Source: Chrysochromulina tobinii (lineage: Eukaryota > Haptophyta > Prymnesiales > Chrysochromulinaceae). From it: 64,000 nt of DNA. Under the pieces are notes generated by a model. It did not search any database. It worked only from the letters and a program-made list of their open reading frames with translations, and was not told the origin of the DNA. The translations under genes and the position numbers were made by a program. The DNA is taken from the NCBI GenBank assembly GCA_001275005.1, contig JWZX01003398.1:1-64000 (forward strand), read 5' to 3'. Of this stretch, positions 1,487 to 40,425 are shown one piece after another (within the stretch, counting starts at the first letter, position 1; each line of letters starts with the position of its first letter).

Positions 1487-1766
1487 AGCCACCCCATACC
1501 ATATGCCCATCTTCGATGCCCTCGCGCTCATCCGCTCACCGCACTTGAGAGGACTACCGCTCAGGGGGACTTCCATGACCTATGGCCGCGCACGGTGGCG
1601 CGGAAGCTGACTACAATGGGGTTTCTGAGGCATTGGGGGGACGTCGTGTTCGTTAACACTATACATCCCAACCGAGCCCAACGAACTGTGAGGCTGAGCG
1701 TCGCCAACTTTAGAAAAGATGAAATGTTTTTATGAGTACATGCTTTCAATAATCTCAGCACCAGTC

Positions 1767-24504: not shown

Positions 24505-26631
24505 CCACCACCACAATCGTGGTGCCTCTGGTCAAGGGCGCGACGCGGCGTGGACAAGGGCCCTGCACGAGGCGATCATGAGCTTGCCACCGGCCGCGCC
24601 GGAGATCTTGCAACAGTTACCCTATCATCCGCCTCTCAGCAAGGTTGACCCGAGTGATGACAGCTCGGCTGATGACTTCTTGGGTGAGCGTGACGCTGTT
24701 TGGGTTGAGTGGATGAGGGCAGTGGGCACGGTTGGCGCCTCGACAGAGTTCAAGCCGCGTGGCTGGGTACTGCCTGCACGCTCGGCGTTGGATGCTGCCA
24801 ACAGGACAGCCGACCCAGCTCTTGACAAAACTGTCGACGCCGAGCCTGGGACTGCAAAGCCTACACCTCGCGCAAAGCGCGAGGACGGCGAGGGCAGTGA
24901 GACCAGTTCTCCACGCGGCGACATGGGTACGCTGATGGCCACGGATGACCTGCCGGGCATGCAAGTGCTCACCACGGCGCCCTCTTCCCCTTGTCCCACA
25001 GGCGCGGGTTCTCCTCTTGGCGACGATGCCGGCGGCGAGATGCTTGCGCACGACGGCGGGCTTGTGGGTACGAGAGTGAGCAAGGGCGAGGGCGATCGTC
25101 ACTTGGTGCTGCAGGAGCCAGTGGGAGAAGGCAGCGTCATCGTAGAGTACCACGGCGAGCTTGTCGTCGATTGCGACAGCATGGTACGCGCGCTCTCCAA
25201 ATACCACACCGTGTGGCCACCGCTGCTATACATCCTGCGGCTGGGCACCTCGTCGCTCGCCATGGATATCTCTCGTGTGGCGTCCCATGGCCGACTCGCC
25301 GAGCATTGTTCATGCAACCCTACGTGCGAGCTGCATGCTTGTCGTACTAGAGCGTCCGACGGCAGCTGGGTTCCGCGCCTCGTGCTGCTCGCGGGCCGTC
25401 CGCTTGCCTCCGGGCAGCTCGCTACCGTCGACTACACACGCTTCTCAATCTCGGGACGTGAGAGCCATGTGCATGCCGACTGGATTCTGCAGCTGCGCGC
25501 GACCACGCCGGCCGTACGCCGCTTTCCGCCGCCAACCGAAGCCTCCATCACCACGCTCGTCAACACGCATGCCGAGTTGAGCTCCTCGCTCGCGCGCCGG
25601 CACCACGCGATCGCCTCGGCGTGCAGCAGCGCGCAGGGCGGGCGGGGTGCAGCACCCCGTCAGCTGCCGCCGACGAGGCCGAGGGATCGCTCGAGGACGC
25701 GCCCAGCACGGCGCCCTCGGCATCCAGCACGACGCCCAGCACGGCGCCCAAGCTGCCTATCCAGGAGATGCCACCTGCCGAGCAGCAACGCGTGCTCGTG
25801 GGCATCCTCAAGCGGTTGCGCAAGGAGCCGTGCGACCTCCTCCACTGTCGCTTCCGCAAGAGCGAGCAGGCGAGCGAGAGGCGGCTGACCAAGGAGCTCG
25901 CCAAGGAGGCGGTGGGTCTCGAGGTGTCCAAGGCCGCCGTGGGCGCCGTGCTGGGCGGCGTGGGCGGGCGGGCAGCGAGCGGCGGACGTGGGCGTGGCCG
26001 CAGCGCACGGGGCAGGGGCGGCGGTCCATCCGCGGCGCAGCCGGCAGCATCGCTCGTCGGAGGGAGCTTTGACGAAGTGGACGAGATGACTCATGAGGCC
26101 GAGCGACCTGCATGCAATGAGGGAGGCGATCGCGAGCTGCATGCAATGAGGGAGGTGACTCATGAGGCCGAGCGACCCACCGGTCTCATCAGTACTCTCG
26201 GCTTCATGGAGCGACCCACCGGCCGCGGTCGAGGCTCTCGCGGCGGTGGCCGTGGGCCAATTGGTGGTCGTGGCACAGGTGGTGCCAAGAGGGAACGCGA
26301 CGCGGCGATGGGCGCTGGCAAGGACGGATACGACTGGAGGCAAGGATGGAAGCGCGTGGTCACGCTACCCGTGGGCAATTCGCCCCCCCCAGTGCCGACC
26401 GGTGTCCAGCCTGGCTGGCCTGCTGCCGAGCAGTCTGGATTTGCCCCAATGCAGACCGGCGACATGACGAGCGACGCGCGCGCACCGCAGCAGTTTCTGC
26501 CCATCGCCCCTTGGAACCGTCAAGCGGGCTACAGTGCAAGCGAGGATACCGGTACGGATCCGTCGGCCATGTATGTGGCCGATGACTCCATGGACAGCGA
26601 GCAGCAAGCCGGGGATCTCGCGGTTGACTGA
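22377..26631 (+). CDS. SET-domain protein (putative lysine methyltransferase)
   Basis: ATG 22377 (MADRSEPTSRTAPKQLKKAQ) opens exon 1 (to 23251). A 203-nt repeat-filled intron ends at 23454 and the phase is kept (GALW, then YLVHMVVAI). Roughly residues 830-965 form a SET domain: EGSVIVEYHGELVVD, LYILRLGTSSLAMDI, EHCSCNPTCELHAC (in place of the usual NHSC) and ATVDYTRF (the catalytic-tyrosine region). Upstream are low-complexity Val-Gly, Asp-Arg and poly-Gly tracts. Near 25647 the coding frame changes. A 17-nt gt...ag segment (25647-25663) would fix it, but so would an indel error. The downstream frame (LRKEPCDLLHCRFRKSEQAS, then Gly/Arg-rich repeats) runs to 26631. Overall it looks like a chromatin protein with an RGG-type tail. 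The degenerate NHSC motif leaves catalysis uncertain. Confidence 0.8.
23252..23454 (+). repeat. intron 1 of the SET gene, filled with short tandem repeats
   Basis: The intron runs from gtagcgcg to cactctcag. Its interior is built from copies of tgacctcggag and tgacctcaatc in irregular alternation. The exon after it also starts GTA, as does the intron, but the match is only three bases, so a duplication origin is not demonstrated here. Confidence 0.8.
26086..26154 (+). mobile_element. introner-like insertion, reverse orientation, in frame
   Basis: Twenty-three bases starting rtgactcatgaggccgagcg occur at 26086 and again at 26155. Between them lies a core holding two copies of ctgcatgcaatgagggag, the reverse complement of the intron end seen in CLPTM1. 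The offset is 69 bp (a multiple of three) with no stop, so it can be translated. The first copy begins AT where the second begins GT, so a former 5' splice site may have been lost. Confidence 0.65.
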
Positions 26632-27115
26632 ACGCAGTCGCCGCGACATTGCGGAAAAGGCCGGCGAGATGAGAGAACTGCCAGAAGGTTCCAACGGGGG
26701 GTGACGTGTGAGGAAAGGCGTGTGTCAGTGCGCGCGCGCCGGCTGCCGCGCTTGACGCAGAGCTGTTTCAGACATCAGAGAGCGGAGTGACAAGTTCAGA
26801 CATCAGAGAGCGTGACGAGTCGAGTTCAGACACGAGAGCGTATACACGCAGAGGAGAATGAGCGCAGACCGCGAGCACGCCGGACGATCAGCGGTCTGTC
26901 CGAAAGGTTGAGTCTTGAGTTAATCAATCGTGTGCCCCTGACCCAGCACATACAGGTTGCACGACAGCTGACGCGGACACCCAGTTCCGGAAGACGTCGC
27001 ACGCCGTCCTCGGACCGGCGTCTAAGCTCTAACGGTCCTCAGAAACAATTGGGTTTTCCCGACGGGCCGCGCGTGTGCCGACTGCCGTGTCGCTGTCGGG
27101 TGCCGGGTGGTGTGT
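26632..27115. other. convergent intergenic region
   Basis: This 484-bp gap lies between the SET gene (+) and the sulfatase (-). The segment ttcagacatcagagagcg is duplicated at about 26767 and 26796, with a third, partial copy. No gene is recognised. Confidence 0.5.
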
Positions 27116-28815
27116 TCACGCCTCCACCGTGGCTGCACTTGGCAGAGCGCTCGCCGTGGCGCGCCAGCCAGCCTTGAGCTGCTCAAAGTGCATCTTTACC
27201 TTCTGCTGCATCCCGTCGTGATAGGCCAAGTTGCGGTTCTCGAGCGGATCCGCCGTCAAATTGTAGAGCTCAAAGCCACAATCTTTCTGTTCCATGGTCC
27301 ATGTCGTCTCGTTCCTGATGCCATCGAAGTCGACCCACGCGGTGAAGCGCACCTCGACGAGGCGCATCGAGTAGCCCATGATCTTGGGCGGGCTCCCCTT
27401 CCGCGGATACTGTGAGTAGCTTGCATTCTTCCATGCGCGCGTCGGGTTTTTGATGAGGGGCATCATGGAAGTGCCTTCAGTGCAGAGCGCCGTCTTCCAC
27501 GGCTTTGCAACCGGGCACACAGGAACCGGCGGGAGACCGGCGGCTTCGATGAGCGTCGCCATGATGTCCACGTGCTCGACGAGGGCATGCGAGACGAGCC
27601 CGCCATCCGTCAGCCCGGGGATACGCAGAAGCACGGGCGCCAGGGTATCCTCCTGAAAATTGGTATGCTTTGCCCAGGCGCCATGGTGCCCCAGCTTCCA
27701 CCCATGATCGCCCCAGAAGATGACGATGGTCGAATTCCAGAGGCCTAGCACCTGATGATGGAAGCAATCAGTGGTCATCATTGGTCATCATTGGTCATCA
27801 GCACACAGCGCTCGATGGTCGAAATCCAGAGGCATAGCACCTTGAGCTCGTTGAGCAGTGCGCCCATGTTGCTATCCGTGAAGCTCAACGCCGCTTGGTA
27901 CGCCCGCACCAGCTCGAGGGCTTTCCAGTCGGGGAGAGTCTCATTGATGGCGCCGGTGAAGCCCAGGGCGGCGACGTCGCTGTAGCTTTGGAGCTCCTCA
28001 GATGCGTAAGCGACCGCAGGCATGTCCCAGGGCGCGTACGGGTTAGGCGCGAGCTGCGTATCCGCTGCGGGGTAAAGGTCGAAGAAGCTCGACGGCGCGA
28101 CAAAGGGCAGATGTGGCTTGCGAAGCCCCACCGCCAAGAAAAACGGCTGTGGGGTCTCGCCGTTAACGAGCGCAGAGCGTTGGGCAGCCGCGAGACGGCG
28201 CATCCACATGAGACCGTGCTCACGGACTTGCGAGTCCTGGCACAGGCCGACCACACTCTCGTTGACAGACCTCCAAGAGAGCCCTGACCCTTGCTCCGAA
28301 GCTTGCAGCTCCGAGATGTCGCCCTCGTGCCATGGCCAGAAATCGGCTTTCGGTTGACACTGGCCGGGTCCGTCGTCCTGGCCCAAGAACCAACCGTCCT
28401 TGCCCGTGGTCGTGCCGTTGAAGTCGGTCCACGAATTCGGGTCATCATAATAGGATGCGTGGCCATCGTGAAAGATCTTGCCCATGCCCACCGTGATGTA
28501 ACCGGCCGCCGTGAAAATACCGGGGATCGTGATGCAGTCGGCGCATCCCACCTCACGCGTGTTATCATACAGGTTGTAGACGTGCGTCGTATCCGGGCGG
28601 CGACCATAGAGGACGCTCGTGCGGCTGGGCGAGCACACAGCTTGCTGCACGTGCGAGTTTGTCAGAAGGATCGCGTCATCCATGAATTTGTCAAGGTTTG
28701 GCGTCATCATGTACTTGTACTTGAGCGTCTGTGGCTCTGGCCAGCGGTTGATCATCGGCCGCAGGTCGTCGTTGGGGATGAAGAGCACGTTCGGCCGCGT
28801 CGCGATCGACATCAT
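27116..28815 (-). CDS. formylglycine-dependent sulfatase, iduronate-2-sulfatase-like
   Basis: Exons 28815-27841 and 27751-27116 join in phase to 536 residues. The metal-binding aspartates are in FIPNDD (residues 16-17). The catalytic cysteine to be converted to formylglycine is Cys61 in CSPSRTSVLYGRRP, a perfect C-x-P-S-R signature. FFLAVGLRKPHLPFVAP and IVIFWGDHGWKLGHHGAWAKH are the other sulfatase blocks. The order matches alkaline-phosphatase-fold sulfatases of the iduronate-sulfatase group, which remove sulfate esters from polysaccharides. The first residues (MMSIATRPNVLF) lie only a few residues before the catalytic core, and no signal peptide is seen although these enzymes normally need one. 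A foldback element starts 7 bp upstream of the ATG and may have replaced or hidden the true first exon. Confidence 0.93.
27752..27840 (-). mobile_element. introner-like intron of the sulfatase
   Basis: The intron's first 28 nt (starting gtgctatgcctctggatttc) match 26 of the first 28 nt of the next exon (gtgctaggcctctggaattc). After the copy come three gatgacc-type decamers and the end ctgattgcttccatcatcag. Removing 89 nt joins LNELK to VLGLWNSTIVIFW, the expected sulfatase sequence. Confidence 0.9.
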
Positions 28816-28821
28816 GATCGT

Positions 28822-29147
28822 TACCGGTAAAAAAACACCGGGGGAGCCGGGACACTTCGGACACGGCACAAACACGGGACACACGGACAGCCGACCCTCA
28901 CAACCATCCCAACCCACCAACGCACCCGCGCGACCGCGAGACGACCGAAGTGGGTTCGAGTGAAGCACCACTCCGACCCACCCCCCTTTTATTACCGCTT
29001 CGGTCGTCGCGCTGACGAGTGACGTGCGGGGTGTGTGTTGTTGGTGGGTTTGGTTGGTTGTGAGATTCGTCTGTGTGCCTTTGTGCGTCCGCGTGTTCCG
29101 TGTGTCTCGTGTGTGTCCCGGCTCCCCCCGGTGTCTTTTTACCGGTA
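28822..29147. mobile_element. foldback (inverted-repeat) element at the sulfatase promoter
   Basis: The left arm starts taccggtaaaaaaacaccgg, then gagccgggacac and ctcacaacca...cccaaccc, and ends near gacgaccgaag. The right arm, read on the other strand, gives taccggtaaaaagacaccgg, gagccgggacac, ctcacaaccaaccaaaccca and gacgaccgaag in the same order. Arms of about 150 bp meet near 28985. There is no coding capacity. It resembles a MITE or a foldback element between two divergent genes. Confidence 0.8.
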
Positions 29148-29201
29148 CGGTGCCGGGCAATACTCCGTTGTGTTGAGCATCAGAATTGACGAGCATCAGA
29201 A

Positions 29202-29390
29202 ATGAAAGGCTCCTCTCCCGAGGACAACGTCAAGCAGGCATTCGTCGCTGTTTTCATCTGTCTGCTTTTATCAGTAGTAGCTGCGCTCATCACTGATATT
29301 CGTCTCCAGCACCGATACCGAGGGTCCTCATTTCGTCAGCTCTCCGACCGCGAGCGCTACCTCATCCTCTCCACGGCAGTTGCTTCTTGA
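29202..29390 (+). CDS. possible membrane-anchor leader of the esterase-like gene
   Basis: ATG 29202 opens 62 codons with a single transmembrane helix (VAVFICLLLSVVAALI) followed by basic residues, typical of a type II membrane anchor. It ends with TGA at 29388-29390 and is in the same frame as the esterase-like region that begins at 29394. The two may be one type II protein interrupted by a stop, a recent mutation or a sequence error. No intron that removes the stop and keeps the GYS motif was found. Confidence 0.5.
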   Translation: MKGSSPEDNVKQAFVAVFICLLLSVVAALITDIRLQHRYRGSSFRQLSDRERYLILSTAVAS

Positions 29391-29393
29391 TCG

Positions 29394-30506
29394 ATGGCAC
29401 TGCCACCGTCGCCGTCATGGGTGCCACCAATTTGCCTCGATGGGTCCCACCTCTTCTTCTTTGGTTACAGTGAAGTTGGTCGGCACGTCACATGGATTCG
29501 TGAGCAGCTTGATTGCCTGCCATCATGCTCGCAGCAGTGCACTTCGAGTGGCAGCAAGCTTGCTGCTGGATCACACATTGGAAGCTGCAAACGCTTCAAC
29601 CTGACCGTCTCCAGCGTCACGCCAATGTGCTTCCAGGCCGGTGCTAAAAGTCGATTTACGAGAGAGGCGAAGGGTATGCTCAACATGTCGTCCAGGGATC
29701 TTAAGCACGAGGCCATTCGCCTCAGCGTTACAGCTGCCTTCACCGAGTTACGAGATGGGCTCTGCCGCGAAAATCGTTACGGCGGCATGGGCGGAATCAA
29801 CGCGTCGTGCATGCATGCGAGCTCCAAATTCAACATGAACTACAGGTGGAAAACTTTCCAGAGCGACGGATACGATGCCGGAGACCAAGCCCGCGTCCTC
29901 GAGGCGGCCAGGCGCGGAGGCCCAGTCATCGTCATCCTAGAAGGCGGCGGTCCACACCACTTTGCCAAGTTTCCAGAGCATCACCGAGTCAGGACAGGAA
30001 AAACAAAGCAGACCCTTTTCACCGCTGTAGAAGACGACTGGAGAATGCCACAAACATGGGTTGACGACTACATGATAGGGACTAAGGCGCTGCTGAGGCG
30101 CCATGCCACTGCGTACCCTTCCAATGTTTGTGTCCTGTGGAAGACGATGCACATCGGTCCACGCTCCAACAACACAAGCACCCACCACCCGAGTGTCGTC
30201 AACGGACTCCATCACTGGCTCAACCGTTTGGCGATCGCTGCAGCGCAAGATGCCAGGGTAGGGATTCTCGACCTTTCAGACCTGACCATGACCATGACGG
30301 CTACACCCAAGCTCACAGGTGCCCATGCGGCCGTGTCAGCTGAGGGCGATCCATACCATGGCTTTCCCCAAGGGGTGTTGGTTCCGGAGCTCTTGCAACG
30401 AGCCTGCACAAGGTGCAGTCTTTCAGTTCATCGCCCATCTGGGTCTCCAATGGTCTTGCCCAAGGATGTGATTCCATCTCAATGTGGAACTGCACCTGGT
30501 ACATGA
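29394..30506 (+). CDS. SGNH / PC-esterase-like protein
   Basis: This frame of 370 codons (ATG 29394) has the layout of trichome-birefringence/NXPE-type PC-esterases, which acylate or deacylate polysaccharides in the Golgi. It has an N-terminal LFFFGYSEVGRH in the place of the G-D-S nucleophile block, VIVILEGGGPHHF as the middle glycine block, NVCVLWKTMHIGP as the next strand, and GDPYHGFP as the C-terminal D-x-x-H catalytic pair. Asp of GDS is replaced by Tyr, but the serine is kept. Cysteines are frequent, as in lumenal proteins. It is divergent from the sulfatase across the foldback element. Family assignment is moderate and rests on motif order only. Confidence 0.6.
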   Translation: MALPPSPSWVPPICLDGSHLFFFGYSEVGRHVTWIREQLDCLPSCSQQCTSSGSKLAAGSHIGSCKRFNLTVSSVTPMCFQAGAKSRFTREAKGMLNMSSRDLKHEAIRLSVTAAFTELRDGLCRENRYGGMGGINASCMHASSKFNMNYRWKTFQSDGYDAGDQARVLEAARRGGPVIVILEGGGPHHFAKFPEHHRVRTGKTKQTLFTAVEDDWRMPQTWVDDYMIGTKALLRRHATAYPSNVCVLWKTMHIGPRSNNTSTHHPSVVNGLHHWLNRLAIAAAQDARVGILDLSDLTMTMTATPKLTGAHAAVSAEGDPYHGFPQGVLVPELLQRACTRCSLSVHRPSGSPMVLPKDVIPSQCGTAPGT

Positions 30507-30685
30507 GTGTGCGAGCGTTAGTTCACATAAAATACGAACACGCGGTCACGACGTCGCTCCGGAAACACCCTCAAACCAATACCTTTCACTTGCATGGTTG
30601 CTCGGCTTGGTTGCTTCGGGACCTCTCGAGAGACAAGAACTTAATTAGCTGGGGGGCGCGAGTTTGAGCTGACCTTCGCCTCGTA

Positions 30686-30716
30686 GTTGACTTGACTTGA
30701 CTTGACTTGACTTGCA
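30686..30716 (+). promoter_or_regulatory. (TTGAC)n repeat upstream of HflX
   Basis: Five or more perfect ttgac pentamers lie about 51-81 bp before the HflX ATG. They have the same sequence and orientation as the repeats before GST-HINT and CLPTM1. Confidence 0.4.
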
Positions 30717-30766
30717 CGACTGTGAACTCGTCGCTTCGGAGCTCGAGAACACAGTCGAGAGAAAGA

Positions 30767-32501
30767 ATGATGGGTCACGCTCAGTTGCTGAGCCTGTGGC
30801 TGCTGCCCACCACGGCACTTCATTTTGCCGTGCCCGGCCGAAGCGGCTGCAGCGGCTGCAGCGGCTGTATCATCCGTCGTCGCTCGCCGCCAGCCGCCAT
30901 GGCCGCCTTTGGCGCAGAGACCATCAACGTGGAGCCCGGTGCGAAGTGCTATCTCGTCGGCGCAGTAGTCAAACGCGACCGATACAAGACGCTAGTCAAT
31001 TCGTGGGGTATCGATGACTCCCTTGATGAGCTGCAGCGGCTCTGCGAGACGGCGGGTCTCGAGGTGCTTGGCCGCGACTACCAAACGCTTCAGCACCCGT
31101 CACCTTCGACCTTCATTGGGCAAGGCAAGCTCGACGAGATCGCGGCTTTGGTGAAATCGATGCGCGTGAGCACAGTCATCTTCGACGAGGAGCTCACGCC
31201 GGCCCAGGGCCGTAACATCCAGAACGTGCTCATCGAGGCATGCGGCGAGCAGGTGCAGGTCCTCGATCGGACAATGCTCATCCTCGTCATCTTTTCGCAG
31301 CGCGCGCGCACGAGCGAGGCCAAGCTGCAAGTGGCTGCGGCGCAGATGAAGTACATGCTGCCGCGTCTCAAGTTCTTCCTCACGCAAGGTGCGGGTATGG
31401 ATGCCAAGGGTGGCAGCGGCGGCGGCATGTTCCTCAAGGGCTCCGGTGAGACCCAACTTGAGGAGGATCGCCGACTCTTTCGCAAGCAGCTCGGCAAGAT
31501 TGAGGACGATCTGGCGGCGGTGCAGGCGCAGCGCGACATGCTGCGCGCCAAGCGGCGCGAGGGCGATCGGCGCCCCGTCGTCGCCATCGTTGGGTACACG
31601 AACGCAGGCAAGTCCACGCTGCTCAACACCCTCTGTGGCTCCTCGGAGGTGTATGCGGACGATTTGCTGTTTGCGACGCTCGACCCGACGAGCAGACTAC
31701 ACGCGCTGCCCGGCGGCAAGGAGGTGCTGCTCACGGACACGGTCGGCTTCATCCAGAAGCTGCCCACCAAGCTCGTCGCCGCCTTCCGCGCCACGCTCGA
31801 TGAGCTTGTCGATGCCACCTTGCTCGTGCACGTGGTCGACGCCTCCTCAGAGATCGCCGTACAGCAGGTGCGCTCTGTCCAGGGCATCGTCAAAGAGCTC
31901 GAGGCGAGCGGCAAGCCACAGATCCTCGTGCTCAACAAGGCTGATGCCGTCGGTGCCGACCCGACGCTGGCGGCTCGTGCTGCGTCGACCGACTGGCTCC
32001 ACCTGGACGGCGACGTGACGCCGTGCGCGGTGCTCGCCATCCCGCTGAGTGCCTCTGATGACACTGCGGGTGCTCGCCATCCTGCTGAGTGCCTCTGATG
32101 ACACTGCAGGTGCTCGCCATCCTGCTGAGTGCCTCTGATGACACTGCAGGTGCTCGCCATCCCGCTGAGTGCCTCTGATGACACTGCAGGTGCTCGCCAT
32201 CTCGGCCCGCGATGGACGAAACCTCGATAAGCTCCGGAAGGAGATCGAGGCGGTTCTCGTGCGGATGTCCATCCAGGTCGAGTGCGTTCTCCCCTATGCC
32301 GAGGCCGCGCTCCTCGCCGAGGTCCATAAGACAGGCACCATCAGTACAGAGGAGTACGTGGATAAAGGCACGCGTCTCGTAGCCGCCGTGCCACTCTCAC
32401 TACGGAACCGCCTCGAGAAGGCATGCGTCACCGCCGCGACGCCCTTCAGCGCCGCGGACGTTACGGCCAAGGAACCGGTCAAGAGCCCTTCGGCACCTTG
32501 A
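30767..32501 (+). CDS. hflX: HflX-type ribosome-associated GTPase, probably plastid
   Basis: Exons 30767-32029 and 32190-32501 join in phase 0 to 524 residues. The N-terminus (two ATGs, then a hydrophobic stretch with repeated SGCSGC) is consistent with an organelle presequence. The HflX N-terminal domain follows (STFIGQGKLDEI, VIFDEELTPAQGRN), then the glycine-rich GETQLEEDRRLFRKQL. The G domain has G1 GYTNAGKST near residue 275, G3 DTVGFIQKLP and G4 NKAD. The segment DATLLVHVVDAS is also typical. After the intron, VLAISARDG supplies the G5-like SA motif. HflX splits stalled or stressed ribosomes. The bacterial-type sequence fits the plastid ancestor. The only intron is a tandem array of 40-bp units. 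Confidence 0.93.
32030..32189 (+). mobile_element. HflX intron made of four 40-bp GT-starting units
   Basis: Units occupy 32030-32069, 32070-32109, 32110-32149 and 32150-32189. Each starts gtgctcgccatc and three end ctgcag (the first ends ctgcgg). The next exon also starts gtgctcgccatc. Each unit is thus 12 bp of exon copy plus a 28-bp core containing cctctgatgacac, which resembles the cores of the other introner-like introns. Full removal gives CAVLAISARD. Confidence 0.88.
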
Positions 32502-33284
32502 CCGGATCAGGGCCAAACTTGCGAATTGATTCTGTCCGACTAGTAATTCAACCGTAATGTAGCCTACATCTCGCCATAGCACGCGGATAATAGCTGTGTC
32601 ATTTTAGACAGCTGCTCCGCTGTGAAGAAGCAAGAACAACAAAACAGAGGTTCGCGGCCACCGTGGGCAACATACATCAGGTGTCAGGTCTCGAGGTGCA
32701 AACCCTACCGGTATCACAGCAAATGGGTACCGGGTACCTTCACAGTAGCCAGGACAGAGCAAGGAGCACGTGCACGCTCTACTGGCACGCGCTCCGTCGC
32801 TCGCCGTGCTCAACGTGGCGTCGGTGCGATCGCTGCACGCGCACACCGCACCGCCCTCGCACACGGAATCCATGTTCCATCGAGTCCGCTCAGGTGCTTT
32901 CCTCCATGGTGCCCTGCTGGCATTCCGGGAGCACACAGCGTCTCCCTTTGTCTCTCATGACTGTGATTTTTCCGCGTGCCTTTCCGCAGTCGCGCGCCGC
33001 CGCCGACCAGTACGCCTCCCTCCTCTCTACCCCCACGCGCTTCACTGCCCAATCCTGAGGCCCCGAGCTGGGCTGCCTCTCTCTCGAGCGGAGGGCATGC
33101 GACTCTCCGTTCGCGATGAGCTTCAGAGCCACACACGGCACACGTGATCCCCCTCATACTTCCGGCATGCTGTGGGCTGTTGCATGCCTGCGTCGAGACC
33201 CTTCAAGCGCCCCTCGAGCTTTCAGCCGCTCGTGGTCCCATATCTCCATGCTGCCGATTTATACACACGTCTCTTGTTCGCAGG
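32502..33284. other. intergenic region, no clear gene
   Basis: This 783-bp stretch lies between HflX and the WD40 gene. Reading frames of about 110-130 codons cross it on both strands, but none shows a domain. The ttgttcgcag just before the WD40 ATG could be a 3' splice site, so an upstream non-recognised exon may be hidden here. Confidence 0.4.
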
Positions 33285-33830
33285 ATGAACGCGATGCTCA
33301 TCAACTATGTAGCGGAGAAGACAATCGCCCACAGCGACATCATCCGGTCGGTGGCGTTTTCCCCGGACGGGACCAAGATTGTGTCGGGATCGGACGACGA
33401 GACGATCAAAGTCTGGGATACGGGTGCGCCAAAGCCCTCAAACTCGCCCCTCCTTGGCCAAAACTGACGCCTGTTGGCTTGTTTGGCAGCCACGTTGGGG
33501 CTGCTCAGCGAGAAGACGAACGCCCACAGCCACTTCATCAACTCGGTCGCCTTCTCCCCGGACGGGACCAAGATTGTGTCTGGATCGTGGGACGCGACGA
33601 TCAAAGTCTGGGATGCAGATTCGTTCAACCTGCTCGAAACGCGTCCAGGCGAGGCCATGGCCTTCAGCAAAGAGGCCGAGGGTGTGGTGCGCGATGGCTC
33701 GACAATTCGCATGAAGGACGGGGGCGGCGCATTCTATGCGCCGAGCCCGATCTCGTGTGTGGCTGTGAGTTGGCCGAGGATTGCTGCCGGCGCGCAGTCA
33801 GGGGAGCTGTACCACCTCGAGGTGATGTGA
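33285..33830 (+). CDS. short two-blade WD40-repeat protein
   Basis: Exons 33285-33423 and 33490-33830 join across a 66-nt GT-AG intron to 159 residues. Two WD40 blades are visible: [20 protein letters not shown] (then IKVWDT) and [20 protein letters not shown] (then IKVWDA). They are nearly identical at DNA level, so one was recently copied from the other. The remaining C-terminus ([20 protein letters not shown]) looks like the remnant of a third blade. A WD propeller normally needs about seven blades, so this is a truncated gene, a gene missing 5' exons, or a partial duplicate. Confidence 0.7.
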
Positions 33831-34370
33831 GAGCATGGAGGCGGACACCCAGCAGCGTATGGGCTCTCCGTGCGCTGTGTCCATGCGCAATCGACTTACA
33901 TGTTGGGAACGACGATTGCGGAATGGCAGAGGGTGGGACGTCGTGGGAACGGATATGGTGATTGGCGATTGCATGTACACGGATGCGCCGTCCATGCGGC
34001 TGCAGCGTGCAGGGTGAGATGCGTCAACTGAAGACTGTGCATTTGCGTGAGTCTGAGTGAGTCTGTGAACAATGAGTCTGAGTGTCGGTGTCTAGTGTGC
34101 CAGTCAGCATGGTCCGCGGTGGGGTCATTGCCGCATTCGCAGCGGTTTTATTCGCGGCAAATGGAATCGCTTTCGGGTTCGTCTGGAAAACGGGCCCCAC
34201 AGTGGAGCCCGCCCCGGTGCCCTAATGGACCACACCTTTTTTGCGCTTGTCGCGTGGCCGGTTGTGGACGGCATACGTTTTCACACCACTCGCGAGCGGA
34301 AGCCGCAGCTCGCACAGGCCACTGTGGACAGCCGGAGCCGACACTCAGACAGTCCGACTCTACTCTCATT
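33831..34370. other. intergenic region
   Basis: A 540-bp stretch after the WD40 gene. A gtgagtctga-type repeat occurs near 34047-34085. No gene is recognised. Confidence 0.45.
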
Positions 34371-34620
34371 CTATTGCCGGTGTTCCCACTCGAGGATCGT
34401 GGAGTTGATCTGTTCGAACCAGTCGGAGATGACGCGAGACGATTCGTCGTAATCGTCGACGCAGTCGCCTGCATAGGAGAAGGTCACGGAATCCGAGCCC
34501 TCGGAATTGCCGAAGGACAGAGTCCAGCTATCCCCATCACGCGACAGATTGGTGAAGGTCCAGGGACCGAATTCGCCCTCGTCGAACGTATCAGGACAAA
34601 TTTCGTTGAGGCAGGGCGGC
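34371..34620 (-). CDS. possible acidic exon or small protein downstream of CLPTM1
   Basis: An open frame ending at 34371 encodes CPDTFDEGEFGPWTF, SRDGDSWTLSFGNSEG and VTFSYAGDCVDDYDESSRVI. This is an even, beta-rich, acidic sequence that looks coding rather than random. It overlaps the last 30 bp of CLPTM1 in another frame and has no obvious ATG. It could be an alternative 3' exon of CLPTM1 or the end of an unrelated gene. No family is recognised. Confidence 0.25.
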
Positions 34621-37349
34621 GGTCTTGTGGCCCTCGGAGAGCTTTGGTGGGGGCTTCTTGCCCTCAGCAGCGGCGCCTCCAAACAAGTCGAACGGTACAT
34701 CCCTCTCTTCCTCGTCTGTAGAATTCCCCATCGAATCTGAGTGACAAGCGGCCGCATGATCTTCTGGCGCGGCAACAGCCGGCGCTGCTGCTGGTCCTGC
34801 TGCTGGTCCTGCTGCTGGTCCTCCTGCTGGTCCTGCTGCTTGCCCTGCTGCTGGTCCTGCTGCTGGTCCTGCTGCTGGTCCTGTCGCCGGCACCTCCGCA
34901 GGCTCCTCCTCGCCAAGCGTTGTCCCGGGAAGCTCCCGCTCAAATGTGAGGGCCGTCGCCGCGTCGGCCCCGGGCTCGTGCTCGTAGGCGATGCCGTACT
35001 CATTGGCGCGGGTCTTATCGACCGGGTACAGGTATCGCTGGTACAAGAAGACCAAGAAGACGACGTCATCGCGAAGGCACGCGATCTTATGGTGGAGCGG
35101 CATCGAGACGAGCAGTGCAAACGCGTCGTCGATGAAGGTGTTGAAGGCCTTGTAGGCCATCACTCGCCATGGCATGTGTGCCACGCTCTTGAGCTTATAG
35201 TTGATGAAGAGCTGCGGCGTCATCGAGACGAACCCAAAGAGGTACACCGAGTCGGCCAACGATGAGATGACCCAGCTGTACCAGGTCGTGTGGGGGTAGT
35301 ACACGAGTGCATAGATGGCCCAGCCGCCCACTAGAGGCGCGAGCCCCACACCCAAAGTGCGCGTCGCAATCTCGTCAAAGCGCTCCGTCGCTCCCTCAAG
35401 CCTCACCCGCGCCGCCGCCGCTGCCCTGGTCTGCGCCGCCGCCGACCTCGTCTGCGCCGCCGCCGCCGCCGCCCCTGCCGCCCTCGTCTGCGCCACCGCC
35501 GGCGCCGCCTCATCCACCATGCTCGCCGCTGCCGTACCGGTCCCCGGCATCGCCGAGCGCGGCGCCGTGCCGGGCGGCGACGAATCGTCTTCATCGATAC
35601 GCGCCGCGGTGAGCGCCGTGTTGTGCGCCGTGTTGAGCAGCGCCGTGCCGGGCGGCGACGAATCGTCTTCATCGATACGCGCCGCGGTGAGCGCCGTGGT
35701 ACGCGCCGTGTTGAGCACCGTGTGAGGGAGGGTGGCGGCTGCTGCGCCACCCTCCGCGTCAGCCCCCGTCGCCCCCGTCGCTCGCGTCGGCTGCGTCGGC
35801 GGCCTCGTCGCTGCCTCGCGCGCTGCGGCCGACACCGCGGCGGCCTGCGCCGCGGCGTCCTGCGCCGCGGCGGCCTGCGCCGCGGCGTCCTGCGCCGCGG
35901 CGGCTACCCGTGCCCTAGACGCGCGTAAGATCTGGAGCACACGCACCACCTTCCACAGCTCGACAGCGGTCGAGAAGGTGTACGTAGCCAGCACAATCGA
36001 GTTGAGGTTGTCGGCGTCGAGTAGGTAGAGGTAGATGATGACAGTCTGGGCGGCGGACGAGATCACCGCGCGTGACGAGAGGCCGCTCATCGTCTCCTTT
36101 CCCTTCCAGAAGCCAATGTCACTCCGAAAGGCGAGCACGTCGAAGATCACGTGCAGGATGGAGATGATCTGTGAACCACCCCGCGCAAGGACGGCCAGTC
36201 AGATGCAGTGGCGCCATGGCAGACGCTCGGAAGGCACGGCGCAATCGCAGGTATTCGGAAGGCACTCGAGGGCGTGCGCGCGTCACTCTACCTGCATGCA
36301 ATGAGGGAGGTCATCAATGGCCATCGGAGGTCATCAGAGGTCATCAGCGAGGCGTGCGTATGGCACTCTACCTGCATCACCACGAATCGGTACAGGCGCT
36401 CCTCGGACAAAAGCTCGCGGATCTCGTCGAGCTCGGTGCCGAGACCGAGGCTCGCACCTGATGAGGGAGGCAATCAGAGGTCATCAGAGGTCATCAGAGG
36501 GTCATCAGCATCTCGCCCGAGGCCGAGGCTCGCACCGAGCGACTCAAAGAGTGAGCCAAGCTGCGCCATGATCCGGTGCCGACCGACCGAGATCGGCTTG
36601 AACTTGAGCTTGAGCCGCGGATGCGCCTTCTGCACGTCTGCCGACAATGGCAGCGCGTGCTTGCGCAGCAGCGAGAAGGTGTCCACGTAAAAATGGGGCG
36701 CGTACGTGCGCGCGTGCACGTCCCAGGACTGGCCTATCGGCGTGCCGTCGGGTGCCAAGAACGGCGACGCATACGCCCGTGCGTCCGTCACAAGCCGCAG
36801 CTCGCACATGCGGTACGAGTAGATGAAGTGCGGCACGCGGCCGTGGCGGTCAGCCGGCGCCAACTCGGCGGAGACCGTGCTGCTCGTGCTGGGGGCCTCC
36901 GTCACCGCCGGCTTCTCGTCGCTCGACGCGAACACGTCACCGAACACGTCACGCTCGAGCAGCATGCTGGCCTGCGAGCGCTCGCGCGCTTCGTACATCT
37001 GCACAATGTTGACCCTCGCCGCGGAGAGCACGTCGTCCGAGCCCGTGCGGGAGAGCTCAAACGTGAGCCACAGCTCGCGCATCTCACCTCGGCGCACGCT
37101 CGGTGGCACGGGAGTCGTTATTGCCGCCTCGAGCTCTTCGACCGAGCTCACGTTGGTCACGTTCCACACGGCGGCCCGAATGGCTCCTTCGCCCATGTGC
37201 GCTGTGATATCAACACGAGCTCCCCACGGCAATCTTGGGTGGTAGCAGCCATGCCGGAGCTTGCAGGCCGGAGGATAGAAGAGCACATAGAATTCCTTCG
37301 CGGACATTGCGATCCAGAGCACCATGACTGCTCCCACGTAGGTCCACAT
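34591..37349 (-). CDS. CLPTM1-family multipass membrane protein
   Basis: Exons 37349-36536, 36457-36372 and 36168-34591 join in phase to about 825 residues. The N-terminal TM is MWTYVGAVMVLWIAM. The lumenal part includes HGRVPHFIYSYRMCELRLVTD. The family-typical stretch LYRFVVMQ, then IISILHVIFDVLAFRSDIGF, spans intron 2. The C-terminal membrane region includes YPHTTWYSWVISSLADSVYL, GFVSMTPQLFINYKLKSVAH, MPWRVMAYKAFNTFIDDAFA and LYQRYLYPVDKTRANEYG, all characteristic of CLPTM1/CLPTM1L lipid scramblases of the ER. A loop between membrane segments carries a large Ala/Gln-rich and tandemly duplicated insert (35.4-35.9 kb), and the tail has PAAG repeats. The start is chosen as the first in-frame ATG; a GTG-open extension to 37385 exists. 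Both introns are introner-like. Confidence 0.92.
35560..35910 (-). repeat. tandem duplications and Ala/Gln repeats inside CLPTM1
   Basis: A ~69-bp unit encoding TALTAARIDEDDSSPPGTA is present twice (about 35.57-35.70 kb). It is followed by tgcgccgcggcg-type repeats encoding AAAQDAAAQ copies (about 35.85-35.91 kb). A separate 12-bp repeat encoding PAAG lies at about 34.78-34.89 kb. All remain in frame. Confidence 0.8.
36169..36371 (-). mobile_element. CLPTM1 intron 2: older intron extended by an introner-like insert
   Basis: The donor at 36371 starts gtagagtgccat. After tgatgacc-type decamers, the block ends cctccctcattgcatgcag at 36292 and is followed at once by gtagagtgacgc. The intron continues to the acceptor ggttcacag at 36169. 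The inserted 80 bp (36292-36371) thus duplicates the start of an already existing intron, leaving two candidate donors with one acceptor. Confidence 0.82.
36458..36535 (-). mobile_element. CLPTM1 intron 1: introner-like intron
   Basis: The intron starts gtgcgagcctcggcctcgg and the next exon starts gtgcgagcctcggtctcgg (18 of 19 identical). The core has tgatgacc decamers and ends ctgattgcctccctcatcag. Excision of 78 nt gives FESLGASLGLGTELDEI. Confidence 0.9.
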
Positions 37350-37429
37350 GATTTGTTCTGTGAGGACGGGCGCCGCACTTGGCACCGCGACGCCGCGCGC
37401 GAGAGCGAGCGCGCGCTTGACAATCCTCA

Positions 37430-37450
37430 GGTCAAGTCAAGGCAAGTCCA
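37430..37450 (-). promoter_or_regulatory. ACTTG-type repeat upstream of CLPTM1
   Basis: On the coding strand it reads ggacttgccttgacttgacc, about 80-100 bp before the ATG. It is the same pentamer motif and orientation as before GST-HINT and HflX. Confidence 0.35.
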
Positions 37451-37599
37451 CAGTCACAAAGTGCTCCTTTTCTGGGATACACGTCTGAGTGGGGGGGGGC
37501 GTTGCGTTGTACATGCTTGCGTGCGTGGGGTATTCTCAGTGCATGGAGCTGTGAACGCGCGGAAAGTTTGAATTTTGCGAAACGACTTCGGCAAAAGGA

Positions 37600-38238
37600 A
37601 TGCCGCCAGCGGCCGCAGACCATCCTCCGTCCAGTCCGGCACCGTCGAACCGAAGCAACAAGTCGGATGCTTCGCCTTCGTCGCGCGGCTCGGGCAAAAA
37701 GAAAGGGCATAGCGCAAGGAAGAAAAAGAGCGAGAAAGAGCGCAAGGAAGAAAAAGAGGCTATCTCCGCCGATGCCGGAGGAGCTCCTGCTCTGAAAGGT
37801 GATGACGGAATCAGCGAGGAGGCTGCCAAGCTCCTAGCAGAATCCATGTCGTCATTCCGCGTGACTCCACGCAATGAGGAAGCCTTCGCGGAGTCAAAAT
37901 CCAAAATCATGGGTCCGCCTCTGCCGGACACCATCAGGGCCCCGGCCATCGTGCTACAGCACTCAATGAAAGCGATTCGTACCGGTCCACCAGAGCTTAA
38001 CAAGTACGACTACCTCAGACCCGAGGAGATGGCGGCTGTCTGGGTCAATGGATCAGACGACATTCTCCGAACACCGCTCACTGACCGTAAGGGTGGGCAC
38101 GACATCACAATCGAGAACTGGGAGCAGCGTAGCAAGGCCGTCGCCAAGCTGATGATCGAGAACGAGAAGGCAGAGGAGGAGGCCAAGGAGCGCGTCGCGT
38201 CGTTCCGGGCGGCGCTCACGAAGCGGGTAGGCGGATAG
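37600..38238 (+). CDS. hypothetical basic/charged protein
   Basis: A single frame of 212 residues starts at ATG 37600. The first 60 residues are Pro/Ser- then Lys-rich and disordered (KKKGHSARKKKSEKERKEEK). The rest is better ordered, with PPLPDTIRAPAIVLQHSMKA and KYDYLRPEEMAAVWVNGSDD blocks and a terminal charged helix. No family is recognised. The ordered middle block looks conserved-type, and the gene is divergent from CLPTM1 with a 250-bp shared promoter region. A cytoskeletal or flagellar role is only a guess. Confidence 0.65.
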   Translation: MPPAAADHPPSSPAPSNRSNKSDASPSSRGSGKKKGHSARKKKSEKERKEEKEAISADAGGAPALKGDDGISEEAAKLLAESMSSFRVTPRNEEAFAESKSKIMGPPLPDTIRAPAIVLQHSMKAIRTGPPELNKYDYLRPEEMAAVWVNGSDDILRTPLTDRKGGHDITIENWEQRSKAVAKLMIENEKAEEEAKERVASFRAALTKRVGG

Positions 38239-38404
38239 GCGGAATGATTAACGAAATGATTAGAGAGAGCGCATATCCTGCCATGGGTTGCATGGCCCTT
38301 GTATCATGTAAGCTTACCCGGACACGGCTCGACACGGGCGCAAATCGCGCAACGCGCTCGTGCCTCCCCATCTATCACCTATCACCTATCAGCTGTAGTC
38401 TGTC

Positions 38405-38555
38405 TGCCCAGTGTGCCACATGTAATCTTTCGAGTACTTTTGGCCCAGAAGGATCAATTGGGTCATGTAAAGTCGAAAACACTTCTGAAAATATTATGGA
38501 ATTAATTGATGATTTTAGTATTCATAACCCTTTTGTCAAGAAGAAGTGAAATGGC
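38405..38555. other. AT-rich island in GC-rich DNA
   Basis: Between a GC-rich intergene and the methyltransferase 3' end, about 130-150 bp are visibly AT-rich (for example aaaatattatggaattaatt). In the plus frame ending at 38549 it reads as a plausible protein C-terminus (ENIMELIDDFSIHNPFVKKK, stop). Base composition and codon choice differ from every other gene here. It may be a fragment of organellar, viral or otherwise foreign DNA. No gene is assigned. Confidence 0.5.
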
Positions 38556-38734
38556 GCAAAAATTGTCGTCCGCGGCGTGACCGGTCCGCGTCCCCACACC
38601 GGGAGGCGCGGCACCGACCGCCGGCCCCGCCCGTCAGTATCTTCGGTTACGTGTTAGGCTTCGTCGCTGCGCGGGCTGTGCGCGCAGGTGGCACTGGCCC
38701 ACTGGCAGAACGCCGCAGGTGTGTCTGTGCTCGC

Positions 38735-40425
38735 TCAACGTAGAACAGTGCCAACGCGGCGGTTGGCACTCGACAGGTTGACGAGCGGCTTCCACTCTCG
38801 CGGCAACTGCTGCACGTTCGCTGTCGCAGCCCGCAAGATATTGTCGTCCTGCACGTCGCTCCAATTGCCCATGCCATCAACGGGCCTTCGCGCGACGAGA
38901 ACGCACGAGATGGACAGCCACTGCTTATCCGAGTGGTCGTCCTGCTTCGCACTGAAGTTCGAAATTAGAGCATGGCGGAGGTGCTCATGGTGTATGTCGC
39001 CTACGCCCAAGCCCAGCAGATAGGCGGATGCCATATGCGAATCCCCCACCTTTTTCACATCGGTGATCTCGAACCCGGCCTGTGTTAAGATTTCCTGCGC
39101 CCCCATGCACGTGTACCGGAAGTAGTCGCCCGCCTCGTACGAAAAGTGGAAGCGCTCGAGGAACGGGGCCGACCAGAAGACGAAACCACCCGGACGTACC
39201 TGATGAGGGAGGCAATCAGCATGCACTCAGGAACGGGGCCGGCCAGCAGACGAAACCACCCGGCCGTACCAGCTGGAAGAGGCCACGCGCGGCTGCGAAC
39301 GGGTCCTTCACATGCTCAAAGACCTGTCGACAAGTGGTTGTACATCGCACGCGGTGGGTCGGAAGGGCGGGTGCAGAGGTTGGACGCGGAGTAGGGTGAA
39401 GGACGGAGCCCAAGCAGCACAGCCACGCAGAGGGGATGAGCTCAGCGAAGGTGCTCAGTCTGCACACCTGATTGCACACGACCAAGTCGAAGGATGAAAG
39501 GAAGGGCCCCAAGTCTCGAAATCTCGCCCCAAATCTCGCCCCCAAGTCTCGAGGATGCTCCGAGATGGCCACCAGACTGCACGCAAGTCCGAACACGCAC
39601 GTGAGCAGGGCTGCACAGCTGCACGGCGGCCAGCCCCCCAACGCAGCATACGGCGGCCAACGCAGCGCCACCCCAGGCCGTCCGGCAGCAATGCTCGAGC
39701 GCTGCAAAGGCGGCATGTGCTTCACTCTCGTGAGTGGCGAGCGGAGCGCACTCCGATCCCAAGATGCGCTTTGCCTCGTTGACCCGAACGATGGACTTTT
39801 TAGCGTTCTTCGTCCCGTGGTACGAGAACGTCCAGATCTTGGCTGGGTCGCACGCGGGTACGAGCTTTGCGTGCTTCTCGTCCCAGCTCAAGCACCTCGC
39901 GCCACTCGGCACGATCCTGGCCATGTCCTCAAAGTAGCGGGTGAAGCCCCAACGCCCAATGATGCTCTCGTCGAGCTCCCACGACCCTCGGCGATGGCCC
40001 CATGGCGATATTGGCAGCAGGCCACCAACCCACATGAAGTTGTGCATGGCAATAAACGCAGCTTGCAGCTGCTCGGACCCGATGAACACGGGATGGTTTC
40101 TTATGGTCACGTTCTTTGGCGGCACCCAGGCTCGACCTCTATCATAGTACGGTGCATCAAAAGGAACCGCCTTGTGTGCATCAAGCCATGCCTCCACGTT
40201 CCGATACATTGTCGGCCGCAGATTCAGACAACGTTTCAGGATGGCAATTGCGCGGCGGCCTTGCAGGACTTCAAGCGACTCTGATGTGGATGGCAGCTTT
40301 TGGTCGAGACGACGATGCCCATCCTCAGGCGAGAATAGCATGACGTGCTGACCAAGCAGAAAGCCGACGCAGCCAGATACCACGGCCCACAGCACGTGGG
40401 CCGACACAGGTACCACGATCGCCAT
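38735..40425 (-). CDS. membrane-anchored SAM-dependent methyltransferase
   Basis: Four exons (40425-39752, 39576-39468, 39323-39270, 39199-38735) join in phase to 433 residues. An N-terminal hydrophobic anchor (VLWAVVSGCVGFLLG) suggests a type II Golgi or ER protein. The class I methyltransferase (type 11-like) core is read across the joins: LSSFDLVVCNQVFEHVKDPF is the acidic-loop/post-II block, RPGGFVFWSAPFLERFH the following strand, and YFRYTCMGAQEILTQAGFEI the C-terminal part. Joining gives the expected continuous fold, which supports the splice sites. The substrate is unknown; O-methylation of sugars or small molecules is typical of this subfamily. Intron 3 (70 nt) is introner-like. The first glycine loop (motif I) is not obvious. 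Confidence 0.85.
39200..39269 (-). mobile_element. introner-like intron of the methyltransferase
   Basis: The intron begins gtacggccgggtggtttcgt and the next exon gtacgtccgggtggtttcgt. The match continues for about 41 nt with three mismatches. The core is minimal and ends tgctgattgcctccctcatcag without decamers. Excision of 70 nt joins LFQL to VRPGGFVFWSAPFLERFH. Confidence 0.92.

What the first reader, a model, noticed from the sequence alone, without database searches (positions are those of the whole stretch)
26086..39269. Introner-like family: introns whose start duplicates the following exon
In four introns of three unrelated genes the intron begins with an 18-44-nt copy of the next exon (or, in one case, of the pre-existing intron), starting GT. 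It then runs through a short core and ends AG. Cores share tgatgacc decamers and the end tgattgcctccctcatcag or cctccctcattgcatgcag. Two further members are a tandem array in HflX and a reverse, in-frame copy in the SET gene. A pure tandem duplication would make the whole intron match the exon. Here only the first part matches and the rest is a shared core, which fits insertion of a small element with long target-site duplication. Introners are known in other algae; this core family and its 12-44-bp duplications I cannot match to a described one.
Basis: partly seen in the sequence, partly recalled or inferred. Interest (0 to 1): 0.95.

Follow-up and report, generated by a model that had tools for sequence, protein, structure and literature searches.

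The report
Introns that copy themselves into genes
In an unnamed alga-like microbe, thousands of short introns look as if they arose when a small piece of an existing intron was inserted into a gene while 10-50 bases of the target were duplicated, so that the duplicate supplies the missing splice signal; at least one such intron is present in one natural variant of a gene and absent from another.

Summary
Confirmed. In a 53-Mb genome the 19-nt core (up to 2 mismatches) has 3,713 hits; the reversed pattern 0. Of 119 testable sites, 61 start with a copy of the next exon (null 0.42%), 10-48 nt, median 28. A second, unrelated core (1,706 hits) has the same anatomy: 13 of 56 testable sites, mostly 16-50 nt. 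Removing the introns restores frames (9 of 9 confident sites among 61) and gives Lon and iduronate-sulfatase proteins aligned without a gap at the junctions. Homologues show insertion polymorphism: a CLPTM1-like intron is absent in P0241, present in P0242; HflX has 1, 4 or 5 array units, and 0 in two homologues that might be spliced transcripts. Copying is partly local: two core variants, chosen after a local pair was seen, occur three times each in the genome, all within 1.2 kb on one strand; other cores are dispersed or unique. This is introner-like intron gain that differs from described introners by long, variable duplications and by copying pieces of introns. The molecular route and the organism are not settled.

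The parts
27752..27840 (-). introner-derived intron (89 nt) in iduronate-2-sulfatase-like gene
   Evidence: removal gives a continuous sulfatase aligned without a gap at the junction to 5fql; core has one exact sibling in the genome, on C2250; P0002 reads unspliced into it
27813..27840 (-). copy 1 of duplicated exon segment (intron side, carries the GT donor)
   Evidence: differs from the exon (reads VLCLWISTI) while P0002 reads VLGLWNSTI
27724..27751 (-). copy 2 of duplicated segment (start of downstream exon)
36458..36535 (-). introner-derived intron A (78 nt) in CLPTM1-like gene
   Evidence: filled in P0242, empty in P0241
36517..36535 (-). duplicated segment, copy 1 of intron A (19 nt)
36439..36457 (-). 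duplicated segment, copy 2 of intron A (exon)
36292..36371 (-). introner unit placed exactly at the 5' splice site of a pre-existing intron (36169-36371); part of its core has no second hit in the genome
   Evidence: a related unit is also read in P0241
39200..39269 (-). introner-derived intron (70 nt, 41-nt duplication 39229-39269 / 39159-39199) in methyltransferase-like gene
   Evidence: 70 nt would shift the frame if retained
32030..32189 (+). tandem array of four 40-bp units (12-nt exon copy + 28-nt core) in HflX
   Evidence: five units at C1349, one unit in P0123, none in P0121/P0122
26087..26177 (-). antisense copy in SET-domain gene: 22-nt duplication (26087-26108, 26156-26177) around a 47-nt reverse core; the 69-nt insertion keeps the frame
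24927..25001 (+). segment with second-family 3' core (CATGCAAGTGCTCACCACGGCGCC...CCCACAG) behind family-1-like decamers in the SET-domain gene; 75 nt, open in frame, so intron status is not shown
   Evidence: second core family counted

Best explanation
These are new spliceosomal introns made by inserting a short 3' piece of an existing intron into an exon, with duplication of 10-50 bp of target. SHOWN: intron = [copy of the next exon's start, usually beginning GT] + [10-11-nt repeats] + [3' end such as CTGATTGCCTCCCTCATCAG]; empty and filled variants of one gene, and 1-, 4- and 5-unit variants of another, exist; two unrelated cores have the same anatomy; some introns share core variants found nowhere else but in the same gene or contig. 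INFERRED: the 20-nt end supplies branch point (CTGAT), pyrimidine tract and AG, while the target copy supplies the 5' splice site, so precise splicing restores the message. INFERRED: the target is opened by two nicks a variable 10-50 nt apart on opposite strands; both overhangs are filled in (giving the duplication) and the gap is bridged by sequence copied from an intron, sometimes a neighbour, sometimes distant. The variable lengths do not suggest a fixed-stagger transposase. Selection then keeps copies that lie in the sense direction and splice. Slippage between the two exon copies makes tandem arrays, and the intron-side copy decays. Whether the bridge is copied from DNA (template switching or break repair) or from intron RNA by a reverse transcriptase is open; I lean to break repair with templated insertion.
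For: Copy number and control. Exon copy at 61 of 119 testable sites, null 0.42%, 10-48 nt, median 28, 48 of 61 starting GT, on 22 contigs (some of the 61 are tandem neighbours at one locus). The 23 copies aligned without a mismatch span 10-43 nt. Second core, 1,706 hits: 13 of 56 testable sites with a copy against 3 of 516 null; lengths 16-58 (the 58 probably a plain tandem repeat), not different from family 1, p = 0.29. Splicing: of 61 sites 9 were confident on both sides; 9 of 9 in phase after excision, 6 of 6 where length is not a multiple of 3, against 0 of 6 if retained; Lon and sulfatase without a gap at the junctions. Polymorphism: CLPTM1-like and HflX variants. Local copying; best-matching core on the same contig for 21.9% of 199 sites against 5.05% permuted mean, largest of 200 permutations 9.2%. 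31 sense, 0 antisense, 43 unclear of 74. Two C214 introns share 52 nt back from the AG, including 5 nt of one site's exon copy; three Lon introns share (C)CGATTAC, which is present in one of their exons.
Against: No RNA evidence of splicing. Polymorphism is read from predicted proteins, not from DNA; P0121/P0122 could come from spliced transcripts (P0241 and P0123 read into introns, so they are not fully spliced). Locality is partial: the variants were chosen because a local pair had been seen; of 52 core pairs scoring 38 or more, 41 lie on different contigs; of three cores picked at random one had no sibling and two were dispersed over dozens of contigs; the sulfatase core's only exact sibling lies on another contig. 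Two copies that splicing need not have selected (antisense in SET; inside an old CLPTM1-like intron) still sit at G|GT, which random nick positions do not predict. The rho of -0.63 between duplication and core length may come from a minimum intron length. 26 reverse-transcriptase domain hits exist in the genome, so an RNA route is possible. No transposase search was run.
Confidence: 0.6

Rival explanations
1. Target-primed reverse transcription: excised or nascent intron RNA, ending in CAG, is reverse transcribed into a nick by a LINE-type enzyme; variable second-strand nicks give variable duplications and early stops give 5'-truncated copies.
For: Shared 3' end and variable 5' extent between similar introns; variable duplications; 31 of 31 classified sites in sense, 43 of 74 unclear; reverse-transcriptase domains present.
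Against: No element with matching ends was linked to any of the 26 domains (their sequence was not fetched). Local same-gene origin is not what I would expect of reverse transcription in trans (recalled knowledge). 3' ends differ among families and loci. One near-full-length unit shared by L015 and L042 lies at the end of an existing intron without a matching exon copy.
Confidence: 0.27
2. Non-autonomous DNA transposon (MITE-type introner) moved by a transposase.
For: Known mechanism for many introners; dispersed copies; 5-nt inverted ends CTGAT...ATCAG are visible in the 20-nt end.
Against: Duplications of 3-9 bp are given for earlier introner families (passage); here 10-48 nt and variable. 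Two unrelated cores share the pattern; similar introns share pieces of exon-derived segment.
Confidence: 0.08
3. Plain tandem genomic duplication of exon DNA (AGGT model) with later convergence of the rest on splice signals.
For: HflX and other loci carry tandem arrays; known mechanism (passages of PMC3443670).
Against: The inserted part is shared by thousands of loci (reversed control 0) and is absent from the empty variant.
Confidence: 0.03
4. Artefact: tandem repeats in a fragmented assembly, not introns.
For: Core repeats are low in complexity and arrays are common; the assembly has 2,253 contigs.
Against: Other contigs in the protein collection hold the same or related insertions, in clusters of 8 to 81 member sequences (P0002 56, P0123 14, P0241 81, P0242 8, readings); frame tests and Lon/sulfatase.
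Confidence: 0.02

Closest known systems
Introners / introner elements (Gozashti et al. 2022, PMC9860276, passages read; Huff et al. 2016, recalled and cited, not held)
   Same: Many similar introns in unrelated genes; 5' splice site taken from a target duplication and 3' splice site carried by the insert, as that paper shows for Symbiodinium microadriaticum; introners also in Chrysochromulina sp.
   Different: The passages give 3-9 bp for previously characterised families and 4 bp for the Chrysochromulina sp. family, which carries its 5' splice site. Here 10-50 nt and variable, no terminal inverted repeat seen beyond 5 nt, two cores with one pattern, and part of the copies from neighbouring introns of the same gene.
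[quoted passage not shown]
   Different: Repeats there are 4-12 bp and no self-propagating core is described in the passages seen; here repeats are longer and inserts form large families.
Small tandem duplications by fill-in at 3' overhangs (PMC8355091, passages read; mouse cells)
   Same: Duplications span most of an overhang; 43-bp overhangs from paired nicks were used, within the length range here
   Different: No intron-derived insert and no link to splicing in the passages seen.
Introner-like elements in fungi and introner elements in Micromonas (as reviewed in PMC3443670, passages read)
   Same: Found co-linear with transcription; families of similar introns
   Different: Passages seen describe no long target duplication and no same-gene copying.
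Amoebophrya introner elements (PMC7789003, passages read)
   Same: Strain-specific repeated introns with direct repeats at exon-intron borders
   Different: Direct repeats 3-5 nt, inverted repeats 8-20 nt, non-canonical introns.

Membership tests
Introner (broad: repeat families that create introns in many genes) | highly similar introns in unrelated genes in large numbers | tested here: met
   3,713 and 1,706 core hits, reversed controls 0; seen in HflX, sulfatase, CLPTM1-like, Lon and TM2-like genes. How many of the hits are introns was not determined
Introner (broad: repeat families that create introns in many genes) | insertion creates a new intron at a previously intronless site | tested here: met
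   P0241 lacks and P0242 has CLPTM1-like intron A; read from predicted proteins, not DNA; one site
Introner (broad: repeat families that create introns in many genes) | spliced out of the mRNA | tested here: inconclusive
   indirect only: frame continuity 9 of 9 confident sites of 61, homologues; no RNA-seq available
DNA-transposon introner (MITE type) | short target-site duplication of fixed length (3-9 bp) | tested here: not met
   10-48 nt, variable, also among copies aligned without a mismatch
DNA-transposon introner (MITE type) | terminal inverted repeats and an autonomous partner | tested here: inconclusive
   only CTGAT/ATCAG by eye at the 20-nt end; no transposase search was run
LINE/SINE-type retroelement | variable-length target-site duplication | tested here: met
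LINE/SINE-type retroelement | partner reverse transcriptase recognising the copied RNA | not tested
   26 RVT_1 hits in the genome but their sequence was not fetched or compared
Intron gain by double-strand break repair | direct repeats of variable length flanking an insert of any origin | tested here: met
   two unrelated cores with overlapping length distributions
Intron gain by double-strand break repair | repeats in the described range (4-12 bp in Daphnia) | tested here: not met
   median 28 nt
Tandem genomic duplication intron | whole intron matches the neighbouring exon | tested here: not met
   only the first part matches; the rest is the shared core

The most novel reading that the evidence does not exclude
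A self-propagating intron lineage with no dedicated transposon: spliceosomal introns spread because any nick pair or staggered break in a gene can be patched with a piece of another, often neighbouring, intron that happens to be a portable 3' splice site, while the filled-in overhang supplies the 5' splice site. Introns would thus breed within genes by ordinary repair plus selection, and any intron with a strong branch point-pyrimidine-AG end could found a family, which would explain why two unrelated cores behave alike.
Probability: 0.4. Interest if true: 0.92.

Novelty: new variant of a known kind. Interest (0 to 1): 0.8.

Why it matters
How introns are gained is a long-standing question. 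Many described introners look like small transposons with short duplications. Here the insert is a piece of an intron, the duplication is several times longer and variable, and some copies can be tied to a neighbouring intron of the same gene, with empty, filled and multiplied variants among close relatives. That gives recent gain events and makes the break-repair and RNA models separately testable in one genome.

Tried and rejected
Plain tandem duplication of the exon: rejected for the core because the insert is shared genome-wide and absent from the empty variant; kept for array growth. Fixed-stagger transposase: disfavoured by variable lengths; a local alignment may cut short a decayed copy, so short perfect copies are weak evidence on their own. 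Lariat-tail reverse transcription (every copy ends exactly at one CAG): weakened when one search showed other 3' ends (33 of 54 motif-bearing candidates end ATCAG, 21 do not) and a second core. A first direct-repeat control was poor: 46 of 155 control positions also scored, because arrays of elements lie near by; it was replaced by mismatched pairs with nested sites removed. One search crashed after a preliminary count (56 of 134); its setting was revised. In one search, 18 of 61 sites scored higher for antisense than sense coding; I did not trust that, since flanks are often other introns, and reclassified with joined flanks (31 sense, 0 antisense, 43 unclear). The codon model was trained on eight window stretches chosen as long open frames, most of them not verified as genes. 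General scan for exon copies: 150 candidates, 96 without the family-1 motif; many of those are simple tandem arrays or reverse readings of family-1 sites, so that number is not used. Viral contigs held no exact core (the tool notes that records near the window's genome may be left out). Organism: closest named HflX relatives are Guillardia theta 59%, Diacronema lutheri 54%, Emiliania huxleyi 45%; no lineage assigned. Gene names TM2-like, CLPTM1-like, SET-domain and methyltransferase-like are by eye or recalled, apart from PF05602, precomputed for the CLPTM1-like homologues; Lon and sulfatase rest, HflX. The branch-point and pyrimidine-tract reading of the 20-nt end is recalled consensus, not a tool result.
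Full report
WHAT WAS CHECKED. The window is bases 1-64000 of contig C2239 in an unnamed assembly of 53.15 Mb in 2,253 contigs. The reported introns are there. On the coding strand each reads: copy of the next exon's (once: of the old intron's) first 12-41 nt, then decamer-like repeats, then a 3' end such as CTGATTGCCTCCCTCATCAG, then the exon. Two more members are as described: a 4 x 40-bp array in HflX, and a reverse, in-frame insertion of 69 nt in a SET-domain gene, reading ...MTHEAERP-insert-VTHEAERP....

COPY NUMBER. The 19-nt core with up to 2 mismatches occurs 1,898 + 1,815 times; the reversed pattern 0. In 294,878 bases of fetched DNA, chosen partly for hits, 203 sites match the 20-nt end with up to 4 mismatches; the reversed pattern gives 0, and ten shuffled versions give 0 or 1 each. 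In ten 2-kb pieces taken without regard to hits there are 4 sites, all in one piece; the 64-kb window holds 3.

THE EXON COPY. Of 203 sites, 84 were set aside (66 with another core within 25 nt downstream, 13 with one just upstream, 5 at edges). Of the remaining 119, 61 have an upstream copy of the downstream exon starting within 3 nt of the splice point (score >= 10); 12 more have a copy that is not anchored there. The null, the same upstream piece against exons of other contigs (2,380 pairs), gives 0.42% anchored and 2.5% unanchored. Anchored copies are 10-48 nt, quartiles 21/28/33, median identity 96%; 48 of 61 begin GT; introns are 51-162 nt, median 77; lengths modulo 3 (0/1/2) are 21/18/22. 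Some of the 61 are tandem neighbours at one locus. Copy length and core length are anticorrelated (rho -0.63), as a minimum intron length would produce. The 23 copies aligned without a mismatch span 10-43 nt, which suggests that the spread is not decay alone. Some sites without a scored copy show decayed remnants by eye.

A SECOND FAMILY. A general scan showed the same anatomy around an unrelated core, GCATGCAAGTGCTCACCACGGCGCC...CCCCACAG. The 17-nt heart (up to 1 mismatch) occurs 1,706 times, reversed control 0. Of 56 testable sites 13 have an anchored copy (score >= 12; null 3 of 516): lengths 16-58, of which the 58 is probably a plain tandem repeat; no difference from family 1 (p = 0.29). 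Eight of the 13 begin GT. One such core lies in the window at about 24959-25001, in a 75-nt stretch that is open in frame, so its intron status is not shown.

SPLICING. No RNA was available. With a codon model trained on window open frames, 9 of 61 sites were confident on both sides; all 9 are in phase after excision, including 6 of 6 whose length is not a multiple of three, and none of those 6 would be in phase if retained. With joined flanks, 31 of 74 sites classify as sense, 0 as antisense, 43 as unclear. Exons joined across introns of a Lon gene (L035) give 159 residues that align over their whole length to Lon chain 6n2i, with a single one-residue gap some eight residues past the nearest junction. 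The sulfatase aligns across its junction without a gap to iduronate-2-sulfatase 5fql.

EMPTY AND FILLED VARIANTS. In the protein collection, homologues 93-100% identical over the aligned part come from contigs of source ENA; four of the six used read into introns, so they were called without splicing. CLPTM1-like: P0242 (8 members) reads ...GASLGLGRDANDPLMTSDDL and stops, as the window does unspliced (one residue differs). P0241 (81 members) reads straight through the site and only later runs into the second intron...FVVMQVECHAHASLMTSIDL. So P0241 is the empty site and is not a fully spliced transcript. HflX: the end of P0123 reads exactly as predicted for one 40-bp unit; the window has four; the near-identical locus C1349 (97% over 2.9 kb) has five. 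P0121 and P0122 have none, either empty DNA or spliced transcript. A tenth hit of the HflX core, with 2 mismatches, lies on C1364. P0123 also carries an insert, absent from the window, between two copies of VRSVQG; its reading resembles the second core (inferred from protein). Sulfatase: P0002 has the intron, and the protein reading of its exon copy still matches the exon, while the window's has diverged.

WHERE COPIES COME FROM. Two core variants, picked because a local pair had been seen or by eye, occur three times each in the whole genome (up to 2 mismatches), all on one contig and strand within 1.2 and 0.45 kb; the second trio lies in the Lon gene. Over 199 sites, the best-matching core lies on the same contig (at least 250 bp away, different exon) for 21.9%, against 5.05% in 200 permutations (largest 9.2%). 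The 16 same-contig best matches scoring 38 or more, which form ten pairs, are all on one strand (baseline 84% of same-contig pairs). But of all 52 pairs at that score only 11 are on one contig. Similar introns share nucleotides that match one partner's exon (GGCTC in C214; CCGATTAC in Lon): either an exon-derived segment was copied along, or there was microhomology at the 5' junction. Locality is not the rule: of three cores drawn at random, one had no sibling at up to 3 mismatches, one had 49 hits and one 52, over many contigs. The sulfatase core's only exact sibling lies in an unrelated gene on C2250 with its own exon copy, beside 54 hits with 2-3 mismatches on many contigs; the core piece at 36298-36327 has no other hit.

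MECHANISM. Shown: insertion at one site by comparison of variants, duplication, copy-number variation of an array, sense bias among classified sites, partial locality. Inferred: two offset nicks or a staggered break, fill-in of 10-50 nt, and a bridge copied from an intron. Tandem duplications from fill-in at 43-bp overhangs are documented in mouse cells (PMC8355091, passages). The alternative bridge, intron RNA copied by a reverse transcriptase, is not excluded: 26 RVT_1 matches exist, 22 over the cut-off. Unexplained by either: the antisense SET copy and the copy inside an old intron both start at G|GT.

COMPARISON AND NOVELTY. For earlier introner families 3-9 bp duplications are given, and one type takes the 5' splice site from the duplication (PMC9860276, passages). 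Daphnia break-repair introns have 4-12 bp repeats (PMC4202315, passages). Direct repeats of 4-30 bp, mean 11.4, near intron borders in general are reported in PMC11782384 (abstract only). Amoebophrya introners have 3-5 nt direct repeats (PMC7789003, passages). In the listings (18 of 18 papers shown; 30 of 10,633; 30 of 47; 15 of 508; 24 of 24; 10 of 14) I saw no title or abstract start that describes introners with long variable duplications or same-gene copying. Two key papers, Huff 2016 and Gozashti 2025, are not held, so an earlier description cannot be excluded. I file it as an introner in the broad sense, failing the transposon-introner test on duplication length: a new variant of a known kind.

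CHANGES ON RE-CHECKING.

Noticed in passing
window about 32750-34070; many contigs: WD40-like stretch (name by eye): a search with window 30700-39400 gave 209 matches (40 of 802 candidates scored); of those listed, all but the window itself and C1349:6710-9664 fall in this stretch, many about 195 bp apart.
   Followed up: no
C1349:6710-9664: Second, 97% identical HflX locus (duplicate or haplotype) with five instead of four array units; similarity ends in the WD40-like repeats.
   Followed up: partly
L034, minus-strand coordinate about 4402 (C214): A family-1 copy of 81 nt with a non-GT duplication seems open in frame and reads LTYLIACLIRLIASLIS, a membrane-like segment: possible coding retention of an introner (read by eye).
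   Followed up: no
L015:2060-2130 and L042:6340-6406: A near full-length intron unit GTACGCCAyGTCGCC... is shared between two contigs; in L042 it lies at the end of an existing intron without a matching exon copy.
   Followed up: partly
window 18-1487: Tandem array of about 7.7 units of 189 bp at the window's start.
   Followed up: no
window 23259-23431: Array of 11-bp and 33-bp units (GTGACCTCGGA) between two long open frames, resembling the decamer repeats of the introns.
   Followed up: no
genome, e.g. C2236:14348-14833: 26 RVT_1 reverse-transcriptase domain matches, several in long open frames.
   Followed up: no
window 36169-36371: The CLPTM1-like gene's old intron carries the new unit exactly at its 5' splice site, leaving a zero-length exon between two potential introns (inference).
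   Followed up: partly
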